A stretch of DNA of 64,000 nt from Corynebacterium amycolatum (GTDB lineage: Bacteria > Actinomycetota > Actinomycetes > Mycobacteriales > Mycobacteriaceae), in the NCBI RefSeq assembly GCF_016889425.1, contig NZ_CP069513.1, positions 682,001 through 746,000 of the forward strand, given 5' to 3'. Of this stretch, positions 17,448 to 43,519 are shown piece after piece. Numbering within the stretch: the stretch's first letter is position 1; each line of letters opens with the position of its first letter. The position numbers were made by a program, and so were the translations under genes. The notes beneath the pieces were generated by a model. It worked only from the letters and a program-made list of their open reading frames with translations, was not told the origin of the DNA and did no database searches.

Positions 17448-18014
17448 ATGGCTCAGGGAGACGTACAAATCACAGTGGTTGGCAACCTGGTTGCTGACCC
17501 GGAGCTTAAGTACACCCAGAACGGCACCGCCGTGGCGAATTTCCGCGTCGCGTCGACTCCGCGGGTGTACCGAGATGGCCAGTGGGTTGACGGCGAGGGC
17601 ATGTTCCTCACCTGCAGCCTGTGGCGTGAGGCAGCGGAGAACGCTGTCGAAAGTCTCTCCAAGGGCATGCGTGTCATCGTCCAGGGTCGTCTGCGCCAGC
17701 GCAGCTACGAGACCCGCGAGGGCGAGCGTCGTACCGTCTTTGAGGTTGAGGTCGATGAGGTGGGTCCGTCCCTGAAGTTCGCTCGAGCTCAGGTCACGCG
17801 CACTCCACGCAACGGCGGTGGAAACTTTGGCGGCGGTAACCGCGGCCAAGGTGGAAATGCCGGTGGTGGTTTCGGCGGTGGCTTTGGTGGAAACCAAGGC
17901 AACCAGGGTGGACAGAGTGATCGCGGTTTTGGTGGCGGAGCTCCTGCGGAAGATCCGTGGAACTCAGCTCCTCCGGCCGGTGGCGGCTTCGGCGGCGATG
18001 AGCCTCCGTTCTAA
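17448..18014 (+). CDS. ssb: Single-stranded DNA-binding protein
   Basis: 188 residues. The N-terminal OB fold (about 1-115) starts [20 protein letters not shown] and includes [15 protein letters not shown] and [14 protein letters not shown]. The rest is a flexible Gly/Asn/Gln-rich linker with repeated GGGFGG-type units. The last residues, GFGGDEPPF, are the acidic tip that binds partner proteins in replication and repair. GAGGAGAAG precedes the ATG. Confidence 0.97.
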
Positions 18015-18114
18015 GCTCCTTCCAGCCACGGCACTACGTGACTAGTTTGCAGCAGATTTAGCATCCACAATTCTCATAATCTTTTAAAGACATATCCAGC
18101 GAAAGGCAGGGATC

Positions 18115-18567
18115 ATGAAGCTGATCCTCACCGCCGACGTTGACAAGCTCGGTGTCGCAGGCGACATCGTTGAGGTCAAGGCCGGCTACGGACGTAACTA
18201 CCTGCTTCCTCGCGGACTGGCAATTGTTGCCACCCGCGGCGCAGAAAAGCAGATCGAGGGCATTCGTCGTGCCCAGGAGGCTCGCGCTATCCGCGACCTC
18301 GACCATGCACGTGAAGTCAAGCAGAAGATTGATTCGCTCGACAACGTCTCCGTTGCTGTGAAGGCTTCGGAAAATGGCAAGCTGTTCGGTTCCGTCACCA
18401 AGGGTGACATCGCCGATGCAGTTCGTAAGGCTTCCGGTCAGGCTATCGACAAGCGCGCAGTCGTGCTTGCTCCGAGCCAGATCAAGTCCCTTGGTAAGCA
18501 CACCGTTGACATCGCGCTGCACCCGCAGATTACCGCGCATGTTTCCGTACAGGTCGTCGCCGCGTAA
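18115..18567 (+). CDS. rplI: 50S ribosomal protein L9
   Basis: 150 residues. The N-terminal domain [20 protein letters not shown] with [16 protein letters not shown] is the L9 signature, joined by a long charged helix to the C-terminal domain. It binds 23S rRNA near the L1 stalk. A clear GAAAGG-type ribosome-binding site precedes the ATG. A strong terminator follows, so dnaB has its own promoter. Confidence 0.97.
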
Positions 18568-18663
18568 GTTCGCGGTTTAAAGTTTTTACTTTGACGGCGG
18601 CCGACGAGCGCCGCGCCTAAGGATGTGCGCGGGCTCTGAGGCCCAATGACAACAGCACACGTG

Positions 18664-18700
18664 AAGCTCTGATCTTTCGTAGTGAAAGGTCGGGGCTTTT
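18664..18700 (+). terminator. Terminator after rplI
   Basis: A 15-bp stem (18664-18678 with 18684-18698, three G-U pairs), a 5-base loop GTAGT and a T4 tail. Confidence 0.85.
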
Positions 18701-18758
18701 CGTGGTTTAAGGCTGGCTTAAAGCCTTTTACGCAGGTGCTGGAAAGAGCATCTACGAC

Positions 18759-19094
18759 TTGTCCACAGGCTAACGATGATTGTTGTGGATAAACCTGTGG
18801 GTAACTTGCCTGGCTGCCGTGGATAACTTTTCTGGAGAACGCGAGATTTTTATTAATTCATCGTTAATAATCTCCGCATGAGCAGCATCGATGCTAAAAG
18901 GGCAACAGAGGATTACATTTGTGCAGGATTAAGGCAAATATGTACTGACCTGCGTAGATAGAATATTTTCGGGTTGAAACTCCGCTACCCCCGTTAACAT
19001 TCAAGCGGCGGTTTAGGGTTACGGACCGTTCACCTGGACTTTTCTTGATTGTGCACATGTTCTCCCCAGGCCTATCCACAGGTGCTGTGGATAA
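18759..19094. promoter_or_regulatory. DnaA-box-like cluster and AT-rich inverted repeat upstream of dnaB
   Basis: Six 9-mers match or nearly match the actinobacterial DnaA box. On plus: TTGTCCACA at 18759-18767 and CTATCCACA at 19072-19080. On minus: TTATCCACA at 18784-18792, TTACCCACA at 18796-18804, TTATCCACG at 18818-18826 and TTATCCACA at 19086-19094. Between the groups, 18850-18881 is AT-rich and nearly palindromic (GAGATT...AATCTC around TTATTAA/TTAATAA). The 735-bp gap contains no gene. It could be a DnaA-responsive dnaB control region or an origin-like element. Confidence 0.6.
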
Positions 19095-19303
19095 CTTCGG
19101 GGATAAACGCCGTAGAAGATTGTTTTCTGGGGCCTTCAAGGGTACTTTTACAGGTCCGTCAATCCGCTCGAACAGGTATAACTGCGGTAGGTAGTCAGGT
19201 GTCCAGTGCTGGCGGTCGGAACAGACATATTGAATGTGACGGTCAGTCAGCAACAGGGTTGAAAAGGCACCTAAGTGGTCCAGAAGGGGAGGAGCTGCTC
19301 ACG

Positions 19304-20896
19304 ATGAGTCAGCCTGTAGGTGATGGTGGTCATTCAGGAGCAGGGGACGAGGCGTCGTCCTACTCGGTAAGTTCCCACGATGATTCTTTCGATGACGTTC
19401 CGCTGCCCCCGGAACCGCCGGTAGAGGATGCTCCACCGGAGGAGTATTCTTTCTCGCAGAGCTCGGGCAACGGATCGTCGGCAAGCGGATCTGGGGCGCG
19501 GGACTGGGAGCGAGACCGTGGTCGTGGCGCTCGTGCGAGTGCGGTCGCTGGCGCGACTTTTGAGCGCACGCCGCCGCACAATATCGAGGCGGAGCAGAGT
19601 GTGCTCGGCGCGATGCTGCTGAACTCAGAGGTCGTTGCGGATGTGTACGAGCAGCTGACACCGGAGGATTTTTACCGACCGGCGCACCAGACGATTTACT
19701 CGGCGATTTTGCACCTCTACGGTGAGTCCTCGGAAATTGACCCCATTTTGCTGGCAGGTCGTCTGGATCGAACTGGAGACCTGGAGCGCATCGGTGGTCC
19801 GCTGTACCTGCACACCTTGGCCTCCCTGGTGCCAACGGCGGCGAATGCGCAGTTCTATGCCCGCATTGTTGCGGAGAAGGCGACAATCCGTCGCCTGGTA
19901 GAGGCCGGCACGAAGATCGCCCAGATCGGCTATGCGGGCGCGGAGGACACGGAGCCGGAGCAGCTGGTGGATGAGGCGCAGCAGCTCATCTTCAGTGTTG
20001 GACGTGAGAACACGAAGAATGACTACGTTCCCATCGCCGATGTCCTGGATGACACGCTGGAGGAACTGGATCTTATTACCCAAAACGGCGGTCTGGCGCA
20101 GGGTGTGCCGACGGGGATTACCAACCTGGACAAGCTGACAAACGGTCTTCACCCAGGTCAGATGGTGATTATTGCGGCTCGCCCGGGTGTGGGTAAGTCC
20201 ACGCTGGCGATGGACTTCATGCGTTCGGCCTCGATTCGCAACGGCATGACCAGCGCAATTTTCTCGTTGGAGATGTCGCGCAATGAAATCATGATGCGCA
20301 TCATGTCCGCAGAGGCGAAGATCAACATGGCATCTTTGCGCTCCGGTGACCTGGATGAGCGGGACTGGACCAAGTTGGTCGAGGTCGGCGACAAGATCCG
20401 CGATGCTCCGCTGTTTATTGATGACTCGCCGAACCTGACCATGATGGAGATTCGCGCGAAGGCACGTCAGCTGAAGCAGAAGCACGATCTGAAGATGATC
20501 GTGGTCGACTACCTGCAGCTGATGAGCTCGGGTAAAAAAGTCGAGTCCAGACAGCAAGAGGTCTCGGAGTTCTCCCGTCAGCTCAAGTTGTTGGCGAAGG
20601 AACTCGAGGTACCGCTGATTGCAATTTCGCAGCTGAACCGTGGTCCGGAAGCTCGCACGGATAAGAAGCCACAGGTCTCGGACCTGCGTGAGTCGGGCTC
20701 ACTGGAGCAGGATGCCGATATCGTCATGCTGATTTACCGGCCGGACTCGCAGGAGGCTGACCATGAACGTGCTGGTGAGGCGGATATTATCGTCGCAAAG
20801 CACCGTGGTGGACCGACCGGAAGCATTGCTGTGGCCCACCAGCTGCACTACTCCAGGTTCGCCAACCTGGCGGAGGAGCCCAGCGGTTCTCTCTAG
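19304..20896 (+). CDS. dnaB: Replicative DNA helicase DnaB
   Basis: A 530-residue hexameric helicase that unwinds DNA at the fork. The first 85 or so residues are a Ser/Pro/Asp-rich extension. The N-terminal collar domain then starts at PPHNIEAEQSVLGAMLLN. The RecA-like motor has Walker A ARPGVGKSTLAMDF, Walker B-type LKMIVVDYLQLM and the motif ISQLNRGPEARTDKKP. No intein interrupts it. The ATG follows GGGGAGGAGC; the open frame upstream of it is non-coding. Confidence 0.96.
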   Translation: MSQPVGDGGHSGAGDEASSYSVSSHDDSFDDVPLPPEPPVEDAPPEEYSFSQSSGNGSSASGSGARDWERDRGRGARASAVAGATFERTPPHNIEAEQSVLGAMLLNSEVVADVYEQLTPEDFYRPAHQTIYSAILHLYGESSEIDPILLAGRLDRTGDLERIGGPLYLHTLASLVPTAANAQFYARIVAEKATIRRLVEAGTKIAQIGYAGAEDTEPEQLVDEAQQLIFSVGRENTKNDYVPIADVLDDTLEELDLITQNGGLAQGVPTGITNLDKLTNGLHPGQMVIIAARPGVGKSTLAMDFMRSASIRNGMTSAIFSLEMSRNEIMMRIMSAEAKINMASLRSGDLDERDWTKLVEVGDKIRDAPLFIDDSPNLTMMEIRAKARQLKQKHDLKMIVVDYLQLMSSGKKVESRQQEVSEFSRQLKLLAKELEVPLIAISQLNRGPEARTDKKPQVSDLRESGSLEQDADIVMLIYRPDSQEADHERAGEADIIVAKHRGGPTGSIAVAHQLHYSRFANLAEEPSGSL

Positions 20897-29716: not shown

Positions 29717-30066
29717 CGATGTACTAACTAATACTTTTTTGGGAAAGTGCTTGTTTGGTTGTCGTTTGCGTGTGTGTTGCTGGTGGGTGCCGGGGCCTTT
29801 GTTTGTTTTGGGTCCTTTTGTGCTTGCGGGTGATGGATTGCGTGGCGGCGCCTTGTTTGGGTGCTTTTCGCGTGGTTTTTTCATTTGTGGGAAAGATCAT
29901 GGTTTTGTTCCTTTTTCTTTTGGCCTCGTCGGTTCGGGAGAGGGAACGTTTTTTGGATAACGGCCAGGCCGCATGCAATTGGTGTTGTGTGTGGTGGTTG
30001 TTTGTTTTGTTTTTGTCAGGTTTTTGGGCCTTTCATTGTTTTGTGATTCTTCTGATTTGAAGGGTT

Positions 30067-35070
<5,004 letters not shown>

Positions 35071-35170
35071 TGTGAAAAATTAGGGTTTTTGCTCGCGTCT
35101 ACTGTTCAGTGTCTGGCATGACACCACCCACCCGAAGTTTTGTGGTGGGGTTGGTTGTTGCCTGGTTTTT

Positions 35171-35288
35171 GTCGGTGGTGTTAGCGGTGGGGTCACGCCC
35201 GGTCCCATTCCGAACCCGGAAGCTAAGTCCACCAGCGCCGATGGTACTGCACTCGGGAGGGTGTGGGAGAGTAGGTCGCCGCCGGCAT
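35171..35288 (+). rRNA. 5S ribosomal RNA, operon 1
   Basis: About 118 bases from GTCGGTGGTGTTAGCGGTGG to GGTCGCCGCCGGCAT, with the conserved CCCGGTCCCATTCCGAACCC loop. The ends are estimated to a few bases. Confidence 0.95.
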
Positions 35289-35378
35289 GAATATTTTTTG
35301 TTTGTGGGTCGTGGTTGCTCCCCTTTGTTGTTGTGGGGTGGTGGCTGCGGCCCGCTTTTGTTTTACCCACAAGTAAAC

Positions 35379-35824
35379 AACATTCAATCGATAGATGTCG
35401 TAGCTTATGTTTCGGTGATAGCCATTGATTTTGCTTGGTGGTGGGTATTTGGAAGGGGCCCGGTGCGCAGTAGACCGGTCGCGGAGGCTCCTCGAATTCT
35501 GGCACTTAGCTTGTTGGTGTGTGCGATTCATCTATTGCACTTCTGTGACTATCACCGCCACTTATCCCTACATACTGATACCTCGGTCTCAATTGAGGCT
35601 TTATTACCAAGCTGTCCAAATAGAGAGACATACGCTTACTTAGTAGTCAGCTCTGATTTTCGACTCGTACCTACGAGATGCTGTGGCGGCTTCCTCGATC
35701 GCGCCAAAAGAAAATCCCGTATAGGTGAGGTATTGCCTGCGCCCATACGGGAGGGTGTCGTATTTAGTTAGGTTAGCCCTGTCTGGGATTAAGCTATGCA
35801 GTCGCGCTAATCAAAGTACCGAGG
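35379..35824. other. Unique spacer between rrn operon 1 and the permease
   Basis: 446 bases with no convincing gene. A reading frame on the plus strand crosses it from the 5S side but has no coding character. The only clear structure is the permease terminator at 35706-35752. Confidence 0.5.
35706..35752 (-). terminator. Terminator after the NCS2 permease
   Basis: On the minus strand CCCGTATGGG and CCTATACGGG form a stem around a 16-base loop, followed by ATTTTCTTTT, about 75 bases past the permease stop. Confidence 0.7.
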
Positions 35825-37273
35825 TTAGTTATTACTGCTCGGCTTAGCCGACGGGACGTCTCCGTAGCCGTCGTGGTCCTTATCTTCCGAGTTAATACCT
35901 CCGCGGAAGGTGTCGTGAGCACTCGGAGTAACGGCGTGCGGTGCACGGTCGGCGGTGTTGAACAAAAGATTCAAGATGATAGCAGCGACGGAACCTACGC
36001 AGATACCTGAAGCCATAAACGTTTGCGCCCATGCCGGTAGTCCGGAGAATAGTTCGGGCGATACAGCAGGAAGTAATGCCAATGCCAACGGAATACCCAC
36101 GACAATCACGTTGGATTCAGTGAACTTAACCTTGGATAGAGTGCGGACGCCCGATGCTGCGACCATACCGAACAAGGCAATACCGGCACCTCCCAAAACT
36201 GGAGCTGGGATAGCGGCAACGAGAGCGGCCGTCTTTGGAATCAAACCCAGAATCAGCAGCATTCCACCTGCAGCTGCGGTAACCCATCGGGAACGTACGC
36301 CCGTGATGGATAGGACGCCAATGTTCTGGGCAAACGCCGTGTATTGGAAGGTATTGAAAATACCGCCAATTACGGTCGCAGCACCGTCGGCACGCAGTGT
36401 GTCGGCAATACGGTGATTATCAATCTCGGATTCGGTAATCTCGCCGATTGCAAGTACGTCGCCAGTCGCTTCGACCATAGTCACAAGCGAAACAATGCAC
36501 ATGGCAAATACAGCGGAGAGGACGAATTCAGGCATGCCAAAGTAGAATGGATGCGTCAACCCGAAGACTGGTGAGTCCTTAGTTCCAGACCAATCCACCA
36601 TTCCCAATGGAATGCATAGCAGCAATCCGGAGATCATGCCCACTAGAACGGCAATGCGGGCGAGCCATTCTGGTGCCCATCGCTCAATACTGAGAATTAA
36701 GGCCAACACAAACGCAGCTACTGCCAAGTTTTGAGGTGCGCCGAAATCTGGAGTGTCCTTGACTTCAGCACCGCCACCAACCCAGTCGGCTGCGACTGGC
36801 ATAAGCGTCGTGCCGATAATCAATAGCACCGTGCCAGTGACCAACGGCGGAAATAGGCGTAGAAGCGACGCAAAAAGCGGTGCAAAGAGCATCATGAAAA
36901 TGCCCGATGCAATCACCGAACCGTAGATTGCGGGTACGCCGTATTGCGATCCGATAGTAACCATCGGAATCGCGGCAGAGAAGGTACAGCCCTGAATCAG
37001 TGGTAGTCGCACACCAAATCGCCAAATACCCACCGACTGTACGATGGTGGCGATGCCTGCAACAAACAGGTCCGCAGCAATTAGGTGCGGAATATCGGAT
37101 GGGGACATACGCCCGGCATCCACAAGTGCCCAGCCCACGAAAAGCGGGACTGCCACCGCGCCTGCATACGCGGCGAGCACATGTTGAAAGCCGAGTACAA
37201 GCAGTTTCACATGGCCCGGATACTCATCGACCGGATGAACCGTCTGAGTATCGGTCTTCGTTGATGTAGTCAC
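35825..37273 (-). CDS. NCS2-family purine (xanthine/uric acid-type) permease
   Basis: A 482-residue polytopic protein with about twelve to fourteen hydrophobic segments. The N-terminal block GFQHVLAAYAGAVAVPLFVG and the family signature QNIGVLSITGVRSRWVTAAA identify the nucleobase:cation symporter-2 family. The Q-N-x-G-x4-T-G form is seen in bacterial xanthine/urate carriers. It lies alone, on the opposite strand, between the two direct rrn repeats, a position that would lose it by recombination between them. No purine riboswitch was recognised upstream. Confidence 0.88.
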   Translation of the reverse strand: MTTSTKTDTQTVHPVDEYPGHVKLLVLGFQHVLAAYAGAVAVPLFVGWALVDAGRMSPSDIPHLIAADLFVAGIATIVQSVGIWRFGVRLPLIQGCTFSAAIPMVTIGSQYGVPAIYGSVIASGIFMMLFAPLFASLLRLFPPLVTGTVLLIIGTTLMPVAADWVGGGAEVKDTPDFGAPQNLAVAAFVLALILSIERWAPEWLARIAVLVGMISGLLLCIPLGMVDWSGTKDSPVFGLTHPFYFGMPEFVLSAVFAMCIVSLVTMVEATGDVLAIGEITESEIDNHRIADTLRADGAATVIGGIFNTFQYTAFAQNIGVLSITGVRSRWVTAAAGGMLLILGLIPKTAALVAAIPAPVLGGAGIALFGMVAASGVRTLSKVKFTESNVIVVGIPLALALLPAVSPELFSGLPAWAQTFMASGICVGSVAAIILNLLFNTADRAPHAVTPSAHDTFRGGINSEDKDHDGYGDVPSAKPSSNN

Positions 37274-37511
37274 AGTTCGACTTTAGTTCCCTAGTCCAGG
37301 TTTTCCTCACTGGAGCTTTCTATTGGGGTGGTTTCGCTCCATCTCGCTTTACGACGAGGCGATCGGGCCACGCCACTTTGCTGAGATAACTCGTGAGTGT
37401 GCGTGGGAGGCCACTGAACGAATGCATTGCGGAACAGCTTTAAGCGAGACTCTAGGGTTATGGTTTTCTATTAGCTCGGAAATACACTAGAAAGGCCTTG
37501 TGACCTGCAGG

Positions 37512-37541
37512 TTCGCGTTATGTGTGAAGTGTGTGTAATGT
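37512..37541 (+). promoter_or_regulatory. rrn operon 2 upstream promoter (P1)
   Basis: TTCGCG (37512-37517), 18 bases, then TAATGT (37536-37541), followed by a GGTCAGCGCG stretch also seen after P1 of operon 1. Confidence 0.55.
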
Positions 37542-37622
37542 AGCCGGGGTCAGCGCGACAGGGCGATGTGATTGCTTGTTGTGGTGATGTGGGGGAGAGT
37601 TTACTTTGTATTCACGGTCGGT

Positions 37623-37651
37623 TTGACTTGTGTTTGTAGTGAAGGTAAAGT
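37623..37651 (+). promoter_or_regulatory. rrn operon 2 downstream promoter (P2)
   Basis: TTGACT (37623-37628), 17 bases, then TAAAGT (37646-37651), immediately before the repeated block. Confidence 0.7.
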
Positions 37652-37711
37652 CTTCTTTTGCTGCTCGCGGGGTGGCTGCTGCTTGGTTGTGGTGGTTGTT
37701 TTGTGGGTGTG

Positions 37712-37737
37712 TGTTGTGTGAGAACTCAATAGTGTGC
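37712..37737 (+). promoter_or_regulatory. rrn leader boxA-like antitermination site, operon 2
   Basis: The same sequence as in the operon 1 leader (TGTGTGAGAACTCAATAG core). Confidence 0.6.
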
Positions 37738-38084
37738 CGATGTACTAACTAATACTTTTTTGGGAAAGTGCTTGTTTGGTTGTCGTTTGCGTGTGTGTTG
37801 CTGGTGGGTGCCGGGGCCTTTGTTTGTTTTGGGTCCTTTTGTGCTTGCGGGTGATGGATTGCGTGGCGGCGCCTTGTTTGGGTGCTTTTCGCGTGGTTTT
37901 TTCATTTGTGGGAAAGATCATGGTTTTGTTCCTTTTTCTTTTGGCCTCGTCGGTTCGGGAGAGGGAACGTTTTTTGGATAACGGCCAGGCCGCGCACTGT
38001 TGTGGTGTGTGGTGGTTGTTTGTTTTGTTTTTGTCAGGTTTTTGGGCCTTTCATTGTTTTGTGATTCTTCTGATTTGAAGGGTT

Positions 38085-43090
<5,006 letters not shown>

Positions 43091-43190
43091 TGTGAAAAAT
43101 TAGGGTTTTTGCTCGCGTCTACTGTTCAGTGTCTGGCATGACACCACCCACCCGAAGTTTTGTGGTGGGGTTGGTTGTTGCCTGGTTTTT

Positions 43191-43308
43191 GTCGGTGGTG
43201 TTAGCGGTGGGGTCACGCCCGGTCCCATTCCGAACCCGGAAGCTAAGTCCACCAGCGCCGATGGTACTGCACTCGGGAGGGTGTGGGAGAGTAGGTCGCC
43301 GCCGGCAT
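43191..43308 (+). rRNA. 5S ribosomal RNA, operon 2
   Basis: About 118 bases, the same sequence as the operon 1 copy, at an offset of 8020. Confidence 0.95.
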
Positions 43309-43519
43309 GAATATTTTTTGTTTGTGGGTCGTGGTTGCTCCCCTTTGTTGTTGTGGGGTGGTGGCTGCGGCCCGCTTTTGTTTTACCCACAAGTAAACGA
43401 CATAAACTAGCGTAAGTGTTTTAACACTGTATCTTTTTGTCGGCATGTTTATTCCCATACAGCACTCTTGGTCGGCGCCGTTTTAATTGCCTGAACCAGT
43501 CAGCTGTATCTTGGAAATC

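What the first reader, a model, noticed from the sequence alone, without database searches (positions are those of the whole stretch)
18759..19094. Origin-like cluster of DnaA boxes and an AT-rich palindrome in front of dnaB
Six DnaA-box-like 9-mers lie in 336 bases. TTATCCACA occurs at 18784-18792 and 19086-19094 on the minus strand and TTGTCCACA at 18759-18767. TTACCCACA, TTATCCACG and CTATCCACA are single-mismatch forms. Four of the six are within 70 bases, on both strands. An AT-rich inverted repeat (18850-18881) lies between the groups, as an unwinding element does at an origin. No gene is in the gap and dnaB follows. The corynebacterial chromosomal origin is expected at dnaA-dnaN, not here. 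Likely alternatives are DnaA control of the helicase gene, a DnaA-titrating site, or an accessory origin.
Basis: partly seen in the sequence, partly recalled or inferred. Interest (0 to 1): 0.72.

Follow-up and report, generated by a model that had tools for sequence, protein, structure and literature searches.

The report
Conserved DnaA-box control cluster before dnaB
Beside its replication-helicase gene, this Corynebacterium carries an ordered cluster of sequence motifs for the replication initiator DnaA that is kept across the genus and likely controls how much initiator (and perhaps helicase) is free to start chromosome copying.

Summary
Confirmed: six DnaA boxes (at most 1 mismatch to TTATCCACA) lie at 18759-19094 in the rplI-dnaB gap, well above chance. 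The origin is elsewhere: GC skew turns at dnaA-dnaN, 39 kb away. In 464 kb of this genome only three other places hold at least 4 boxes in 400 bp: dnaN-dnaA, upstream of dnaA, and the ppiA-pabA gap. A cluster of at least 3 boxes is present in 88 of 90 Corynebacterium genomes examined, with recurring geometry (plus boxes 11 bp apart, terminal +/- pair 14-15 bp apart) and, in 31 of 88, a dyad TGACCTGC-N13-16-GCAGGTCA (only half kept here). The counterpart site is published in mycobacteria: Hicks et al. 2020 (PMC7738170) found DnaA bound upstream of dnaB in vitro and in vivo. In 3 of 88 genomes the cluster no longer leads into dnaB, twice lying between convergent genes, yet keeps its boxes. So it is probably not only a dnaB operator. 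Best reading: a DnaA-sequestering or DnaA-regulating site that also tunes dnaB where adjacent; plain dnaB control is a close rival. Function is inferred. The AT-rich palindrome is conserved only in nearest relatives. New member of a known kind.

The parts
18115..18567 (+). rplI (ribosomal protein L9), left neighbour
   Evidence: ORF; RplI relatives in 149 of 151 genus genomes
18759..18767 (+). DnaA box TTGTCCACA (1 mismatch)
18784..18792 (-). DnaA box TTATCCACA (exact)
18796..18804 (-). DnaA box TTACCCACA (1 mismatch)
18818..18826 (-). DnaA box TTATCCACG (1 mismatch)
18843..18874 (.). AT-rich inverted repeat (arms 18843-18852 / 18865-18874), kept only in nearest relatives
18946..18953 (+). left half-site TGACCTGC of the conserved dyad TGACCTGC-N13-16-GCAGGTCA; right half degenerate in this strain
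   Evidence: offset -140 from the terminal box; no dyad match in G000
19060..19068 (+). weak DnaA box TTCTCCCCA (2 mismatches), outer member of the terminal palindrome
   Evidence: inverted repeat 19060-19081/19085-19106
19072..19080 (+). DnaA box CTATCCACA (1 mismatch), inner member of the terminal inverted pair
   Evidence: +/- pair at 14-15 bp in 36 of 75 dereplicated clusters
19086..19094 (-). DnaA box TTATCCACA (exact), terminal minus box
19098..19106 (-). weak DnaA box TTATCCCCG (2 mismatches), outer member of the terminal palindrome
19177..19182 (+). possible dnaB -10 element TATAAC (by eye, conserved in the nearest relatives)
   Evidence: not found by the consensus scan; inference
19304..20896 (+). 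dnaB, replicative helicase (DnaB N and C domains)
   Evidence: PF00772, PF03796; start from Shine-Dalgarno and alignment

Best explanation
The rplI-dnaB gap holds an ordered, genus-wide conserved cluster of DnaA boxes that is predicted to be filled by the initiator DnaA and that likely works as an origin-proximal DnaA control site, holding back or regulating DnaA so that oriC fires on time, and would also tune dnaB where it abuts that gene. Shown here: the boxes, their recurring geometry, their retention in 88 of 90 Corynebacterium genomes, box columns kept over spacers in close relatives, and their persistence in three genomes where they no longer lead into dnaB. Shown by others in mycobacteria: DnaA binds the counterpart site upstream of dnaB in vitro and in vivo. 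Inferred: that DnaA binds here, that a cooperative complex spans the minus-box group, the plus-box group and the terminal inverted pair, and that its main effect is on DnaA supply or activity. The step from binding to initiation timing is untested.
For: Density. 88 of 90 genus genomes hold at least 3 boxes within 500 bp in the interval or beside rplI or dnaB; the reversed-pattern control in the same DNA never exceeds 2. In the 750 bp after rplI alone, 65 of 90 have at least 4, control at most 2. Geometry in 75 loosely dereplicated clusters: plus-plus at 11 bp in 31, plus-minus at 68 bp in 27, plus-minus at 14 or 15 bp in 36; in 200 randomisations no single spacing is shared by more than 8, and 14/15 by at most 7. 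Box columns are kept over spacers in L013, L041, L042 and L160. Independence from dnaB: G011 and G073 hold the cluster between convergent genes with the geometry and an exact dyad; in the G073-type arrangement L090 and L093 share 45/45 box columns against 272/358 spacer columns; in G149 a response regulator, a kinase and an opposite-strand gene separate it from dnaB. Origin-proximal in 39 of 39 genomes with rplI and dnaA on one chromosome-size contig (39-183 kb, circularity assumed). Precedent: DnaA binding upstream of dnaB in two mycobacteria (PMC7738170, passages); DnaA-box clusters near oriC said to restrain initiation in B. subtilis and S. coelicolor (PMC4585315, PMC5295017, passages).
Against: In 85 of the 88 genomes the cluster still sits 5' of dnaB or of a co-directional unit with dnaB (ORF picking by heuristic), which fits plain dnaB control. 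The three uncoupled cases are few, and G011 and L090 are metagenome assemblies. Hicks et al. report that a DnaA variant binding less at the dnaB promoter also under-expresses dnaB. PMC5295017 reads the B. subtilis clusters as having no significant role in control. No binding, ATPase or initiation data exist here. The window's own copy lacks the -68/-79 plus boxes and half of the dyad. The dyad was defined on alignments of some of the same sequences, and 57 of 88 clusters lack it at the stated spacing.
Confidence: 0.5

Rival explanations
1. The cluster is first of all the DnaA-responsive operator of dnaB: DnaA bound upstream of the dnaB promoter likely activates (or represses) helicase synthesis so that helicase supply follows initiator level.
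For: Cluster 5' of dnaB or of a co-directional unit ending in dnaB in 85 of 88 genomes. Boxes upstream of dnaB in the class: at least 3 in 500 bp in 14 of 29 loci, control at most 2, with +/- pairs 14-15 bp apart in families f17 and f18. Published: mycobacterial DnaA binds upstream of dnaB, and one variant binds less there and under-expresses dnaB (PMC7738170, passages).
Against: Geometry and dyad kept between convergent genes in G011 and G073, and box columns 45/45 identical between L090 and L093; the 1.5 kb upstream of dnaB has no boxes in G011 and G149 and one in G073. No sigma-70-type promoter found by the scan.
Confidence: 0.35
2. Accessory or former replication origin: DnaA would open the AT-rich stretch and load DnaB here.
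For: Six boxes on both strands; lowest GC per 40 bp is 0.30, as in dnaN-dnaA (0.30); minus-left and plus-right orientation resembles origin layouts (recalled).
Against: Cumulative GC skew is lowest at 658-660 kb (dnaA-dnaN) and is rising at 701 kb. The AT-rich inverted repeat is not conserved beyond nearest relatives. Three exact parS-type sites lie at 666-668 kb beside dnaA.
Confidence: 0.05
3. Chance or relict cluster without function.
For: Box number and order vary between species; the window's copy lacks some genus-typical boxes; G058 has lost the cluster.
Against: Retention in 88 of 90 genomes, shared spacings far above randomised ones, box columns kept over spacers, shuffle expectation 7.6 against 28 in the window.
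Confidence: 0.03

Closest known systems
Mycobacterial DnaA site upstream of dnaB (Rv0057 region), Hicks et al. 2020, PMC7738170 (passages read)
   Same: Same place (between rplI and dnaB by recalled gene order), a DnaA-bound site outside oriC. The same paper lists oriC, rpmH-dnaA and Rv0010c-Rv0011c, which match the three other box clusters of this genome (dnaN-dnaA, upstream of dnaA, ppiA-pabA gap); the last match rests on recalled gene order.
   Different: Binding is shown there, only predicted here. The geometry, the dyad and the uncoupled cases are not in the passages read. By recalled map positions the locus is on the other side of oriC in Corynebacterium.
B. subtilis oriC-proximal DnaA-box clusters (DBC; Okumura 2012, known via PMC5295017) and the S. 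coelicolor DnaA-box cluster (Smulczyk-Krawczyszyn 2006, known via PMC4585315)
   Same: DnaA-box clusters near oriC but outside it, proposed to restrain initiation.
   Different: No deletion data here; gene context was not compared; neither original paper was held.
E. coli datA and DARS1/DARS2 (PMC4585315, PMC5295017, passages)
   Same: Non-coding DnaA-box arrays with constrained spacing and, in datA and DARS2, sites for a second protein; the dyad between box groups is a possible parallel.
   Different: No IHF or Fis site identified, no ATP-hydrolysis or exchange activity known, nearer to oriC.
oriC of the same genome (dnaN-dnaA, G000:C1 660959-661056)
   Same: Same 9-mer boxes, equally low GC dips.
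   Different: GC skew turns there, not here; five boxes there against six here.

Membership tests
Mycobacterial-type DnaA site upstream of dnaB | DnaA-box cluster in the rplI-dnaB interval | tested here: met
   (88 of 90 genus genomes); sister genera: 12 of 26 loci with at least 4 boxes (TTATCCACA or TTGTCCACA, 1 mismatch) within 500 bp after rplI, control at most 1
Mycobacterial-type DnaA site upstream of dnaB | DnaA bound in vitro and in vivo | not testable with these tools
   shown for M. tuberculosis and M. smegmatis in PMC7738170, not for Corynebacterium
oriC | lies at the GC-skew switch, next to dnaA-dnaN | tested here: not met
   skew minimum 658-660 kb, cluster at 700.8-701.1 kb
oriC | AT-rich unwinding element next to the boxes, conserved | tested here: inconclusive
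   lowest GC 0.30 per 40 bp, but the inverted repeat is kept only in nearest relatives
oriC | autonomous replication | not testable with these tools
   needs a plasmid assay
datA / DARS | DnaA boxes with constrained order and spacing, outside oriC | tested here: met
   (75 dereplicated clusters); relatedness not fully removed
datA / DARS | site for a DNA-bending partner (IHF, Fis) among the boxes | tested here: inconclusive
   dyad with spacer 13-16 in 31 of 88 clusters, 0.3 expected, binder unknown; half-site only in the window
datA / DARS | promotes DnaA-ATP hydrolysis or nucleotide exchange | not testable with these tools
   biochemistry needed
B. subtilis-type oriC-proximal DnaA-box clusters | clusters outside oriC but near it | tested here: met
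   rplI-dnaB and ppiA-pabA clusters in this genome; rplI and ppiA on opposite sides of dnaA in 38 of 39 genomes on one chromosome-size contig
B. subtilis-type oriC-proximal DnaA-box clusters | removal makes initiation early | not testable with these tools
   needs deletion in a laboratory strain
DnaA-regulated dnaB promoter | cluster leads into the transcription unit holding dnaB | tested here: met
   met in the window and in 85 of 88 clusters; not met in G011, G073, G149
DnaA-regulated dnaB promoter | promoter between cluster and dnaB | tested here: inconclusive
   no consensus promoter; conserved TATAAC at 19177 by eye

The most novel reading that the evidence does not exclude
Corynebacteria and their sister genera carry an actinobacterial DnaA switch: two conserved DnaA-box centres on either side of oriC (rplI-dnaB and ppiA-pabA), the first with a fixed box geometry and its own nearly locus-specific dyad for an unknown partner protein, which together set the level or nucleotide state of DnaA as datA and DARS do in E. 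coli, independently of dnaB transcription.
Probability: 0.2. Interest if true: 0.8.

Novelty: new member of a known kind. Interest (0 to 1): 0.5.

Why it matters
How Actinomycetes time replication initiation is poorly known. A DnaA-box site that is kept genus-wide with recurring geometry, survives loss of its link to dnaB and in many species contains a nearly locus-specific second motif gives a defined target: delete it, watch initiation, and fish for the protein that binds the dyad. It also ties published mycobacterial DnaA peaks of unclear role to conserved elements in corynebacteria, where safe laboratory strains exist.

Tried and rejected
Accessory origin: rejected on GC skew. RNA element: no Rfam family matches 18000-19600 even at E up to 1. 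The dyad as an RNA hairpin: among the dyads I saw arms that change on one side only and no clear compensating pairs, so a protein site is preferred; this was by eye. AT-rich inverted repeat as a conserved part: not kept in L042 or L046 and weak in L041. Cluster tied to rplI rather than dnaB: rejected, since in 20 genomes other genes separate it from rplI. Cluster as dnaB operator only: weakened by three uncoupled genomes. Wider conservation, 29 class-level loci (the best DnaB matches of 59 other genomes): 14 have at least 3 boxes in 500 bp and 7 at least 4, control at most 2; 15 have fewer than 3; four loci reach less than 1.5 kb upstream.

Results against the reading, and rows dropped: G058 has no cluster (at most 1 box in 500 bp of the interval, 3 scattered upstream of dnaB) and G103 ends 1 kb after rplI; both are counted in the 90. 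The 90 genomes are the 30 best RplI matches plus about every second of the other 119; 59 were not fetched. For G038, G070 and G125 the DNA upstream of dnaB was used in place of the DNA after rplI. Family-level loci are the 26 best RplI matches of 76 non-corynebacterial genomes; 14 of 26 have fewer than 4 boxes and one reaches only 55 bp. ppiA loci are the best 30 of 151, read over 1450 bp; L322 has 1 box only. In alignment A1 rows L012, L015 and L161 were cut from a wrong start; L012 and L015 (fewer than 36 box columns) were dropped from the counts. Distant rows L046 (32/51 box against 98/259 spacer columns) and L161 (32/42 against 96/250) align poorly. One search counted repeated pairs within a cluster against a control that did not; one search recounts both alike, and its numbers are used. 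One search searched dyad spacers 6-24 (38 of 88); the spacer 13-16 count (31 of 88) is used. A first gap finder failed on most loci and was replaced.

Full report
WHAT IS THERE. The boxes at 19072 and 19086 form an inverted pair, and with the weak boxes at 19060 and 19098 they make an imperfect palindrome with 22-nt arms, 73% complementary. The AT-rich inverted repeat is at 18843-18874. The window has 28 such 9-mers against 7.6 expected; outside the cluster the rate is 0.116 per 336 bp, so six in 336 bp has P of about 3e-9 per position.

WHERE IT IS. The window is bases 682001-746000 of a 2,474,943-bp single-contig genome whose RplI matches that of C. amycolatum SK46 at 100%. The one DnaA gene found is at about 661-663 kb, and over the 404 kb read the cumulative GC skew is lowest at 658-660 kb and is rising at 701 kb. 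So oriC is at dnaA-dnaN, and the finding is 39 kb away. In those 404 kb four places have at least 4 boxes in 400 bp: 643019-643423 (8 boxes, between ppiA and a glutamine amidotransferase gene of pabA/trpG type), 660959-661056 (5, dnaN-dnaA), 663049-663202 (4, upstream of dnaA) and 700759-701094 (6, the finding); a 60-kb control at 1.88-1.94 Mb has none above one. Exact TTATCCACA occurs 40 times in the genome against 7 for the reversed pattern. The rest of the genome was examined only through that exact list and stretches around its pairs.

CONSERVATION IN THE GENUS. RplI was found in 149 of 151 Corynebacterium genomes. I read the DNA after rplI in 90 of them (30 best matches plus 60 spread over the other 119). 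In the first 750 bp, 65 of 90 have at least 4 boxes, one has 3 and 24 have 0 or 1; the reversed pattern gives 0 in 82, 1 in 6 and 2 in 2. The low group is mostly explained by extra genes: when the rplI-dnaB interval, or the DNA upstream of dnaB, is read, 88 of 90 genomes have at least 3 boxes in 500 bp; the reversed pattern reaches 2 at most (68 genomes 0, 18 one, 4 two). The exceptions are G058, which has none, and G103, whose contig ends.

GEOMETRY. Relative to the last minus box, plus boxes recur at -14/-15, -68/-69 and -79/-80 and near -168, and minus boxes at about -250 to -300. In 75 loosely dereplicated clusters, plus-plus at 11 bp is found in 31, plus-minus at 68 bp in 27, and plus-minus at 14 or 15 bp in 36; in 200 randomisations no single spacing is shared by more than 8 clusters, and 14/15 by at most 7. 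57 of 75 run minus...plus...minus; the median span is 283 bp. A stricter dereplication to 66 clusters gives the same picture. The window's copy is a variant, +---+-, without the -68/-79 boxes. A second motif, TGACCTGC-N13-16-GCAGGTCA, lies among the boxes in 31 of 88 clusters at no more than 3 mismatches against 0.3 expected from mononucleotide shuffles. I picked this motif from alignments of some of these sequences, so the count is partly circular. Fourteen genomes chosen because they carry it have 24 distinct places genome-wide, 14 of them at this cluster. In the window only the left half (18946-18953) is kept, and G000 has no match anywhere.

SELECTION. Against the window, L013 keeps 52/54 box columns but 191/282 spacer columns, L041 and L160 50/54 against 151/281, and L042 40/45 against 123/262. 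L043 is too close to tell (53/54 against 267/282). Distant rows align poorly and show less (L046 32/51 against 98/259; L161 32/42 against 96/250).

IS IT TIED TO dnaB? Of 90 genomes, 51 have dnaB directly after the cluster, 14 have a glycosyl-hydrolase-15-type gene reading in the same direction between cluster and dnaB (one confirmed by Pfam; the others by length and N-terminal sequence), and 20 have other genes between rplI and the cluster with dnaB still downstream (in G125 a contig break lies between). Three are uncoupled. In G011 the cluster lies between rplI and TatD- and ThiF-type genes on the opposite strand, and dnaB diverges from the ThiF gene with no boxes in the 1.5 kb upstream. In G073 it lies between rplI and an opposite-strand rhodanese-type gene, while dnaB is 9.3 kb away on the other side of rplI with one box upstream. 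In G149 a response regulator and a kinase follow, then an opposite-strand gene, then dnaB with no boxes upstream. G011 and G073 keep the geometry and an exact dyad. So selection on the boxes seems to go on where no co-directional gene follows the cluster, at least in that lineage. These are few events, two of the assemblies are metagenomic, and gene calls were by a simple heuristic.

DEEPER. Of 26 sister-genus loci 12 have at least 4 boxes (either TTATCCACA or TTGTCCACA, 1 mismatch) within 500 bp after rplI, control at most 1. Of 29 class-level loci 14 have at least 3 such boxes within 500 bp upstream of dnaB, control at most 2; families f17 and f18 show plus/minus pairs 14-15 bp apart. In 39 genomes with rplI, ppiA and dnaA on one chromosome-size contig, rplI lies 39-183 kb from dnaA, and in 38 it is on the side opposite to ppiA. 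The 1450 bp downstream of ppiA has at least 4 boxes in 29 of 30 genomes examined, control at most 2.

PRIOR WORK. Hicks et al. 2020 (PMC7738170, passages) mapped M. tuberculosis DnaA in vitro to five regions (oriC, Rv0010c-Rv0011c, Rv0057 upstream of dnaB, Rv3843c-RVnc0040, rpmH-dnaA), found homologues of the same five by ChIP-seq in M. [quoted passage not shown] They discuss titration or nucleotide exchange for DnaA binding outside oriC. Four of the five have a box cluster here; that ppiA-pabA corresponds to Rv0010c-Rv0011c rests on gene order recalled from memory. The fifth was not looked for. PMC4585315 (passages) says that B. subtilis and S. [quoted passage not shown] PMC5295017 (passages) describes early initiation when six B. 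subtilis clusters are removed, but reads their role as small. Ten paper searches showed no title on this cluster in Corynebacterium; I saw listings, and passages of PMC13270200, PMC7738170, PMC4285127, PMC5295017 and PMC4585315.

HOW IT PROBABLY WORKS. Predicted: DnaA fills the strong boxes, the phased plus boxes and the terminal palindrome seed a cooperative complex, and a second protein at the dyad (where present) may bend or regulate it. Because the site lies near oriC it is replicated early, and its doubling would take up DnaA or change its nucleotide state soon after initiation. Where a dnaB promoter adjoins (possible TATAAC at 19177, by eye only; the scan found none), the same complex would also set dnaB expression. 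The binding step is well supported by analogy; the consequence is not shown. Plain dnaB control remains a close rival.

Noticed in passing
G000:C1:643019-643423 (L002 2520-2924), outside the window: Eight DnaA boxes in the gap between ppiA and a pabA/trpG-type gene, the densest cluster in the 464 kb examined; at least 4 boxes in the 1450 bp downstream of ppiA in 29 of 30 Corynebacterium genomes read. Likely counterpart of the mycobacterial Rv0010c-Rv0011c DnaA site.
   Followed up: partly
L002 2867-2884 (G000:C1:643366-643383): Palindrome TGTTCACCTAGGTGAACA inside the ppiA-pabA box cluster; a half-like GTTCACCTGG occurs in the rplI-dnaB gap at 19028-19037.
   Followed up: no
window about 29900-43400: Box-like 9-mers recur at about 8.02-kb intervals (29952/37973, 30996/39014, 33760/41778, 33832/41850, 35363/43383), which suggests an approximately 8-kb tandem duplication; the GC skew there reaches 0.26.
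   Followed up: no
G000:C1:665796, 666716, 668163: Three exact parS-type 16-mers within 6 kb of dnaA (motif recalled).
   Followed up: no
G000:C1:405939/405957, 889420/889460, 1301356/1301382, 2106243/2106261, 2412538/2412564: Pairs of exact TTATCCACA 18-40 bp apart away from the origin; two of the pairs have the same 18-bp offset.
   Followed up: partly
genome-wide: Exact TTATCCACA is skewed in strand: 10 forward and 30 reverse.
   Followed up: no
G066 (L189, L267): The only one of the 39 genomes with rplI on the same side of dnaA as ppiA (42 kb), so the locus can change sides yet stay near the origin.
   Followed up: no
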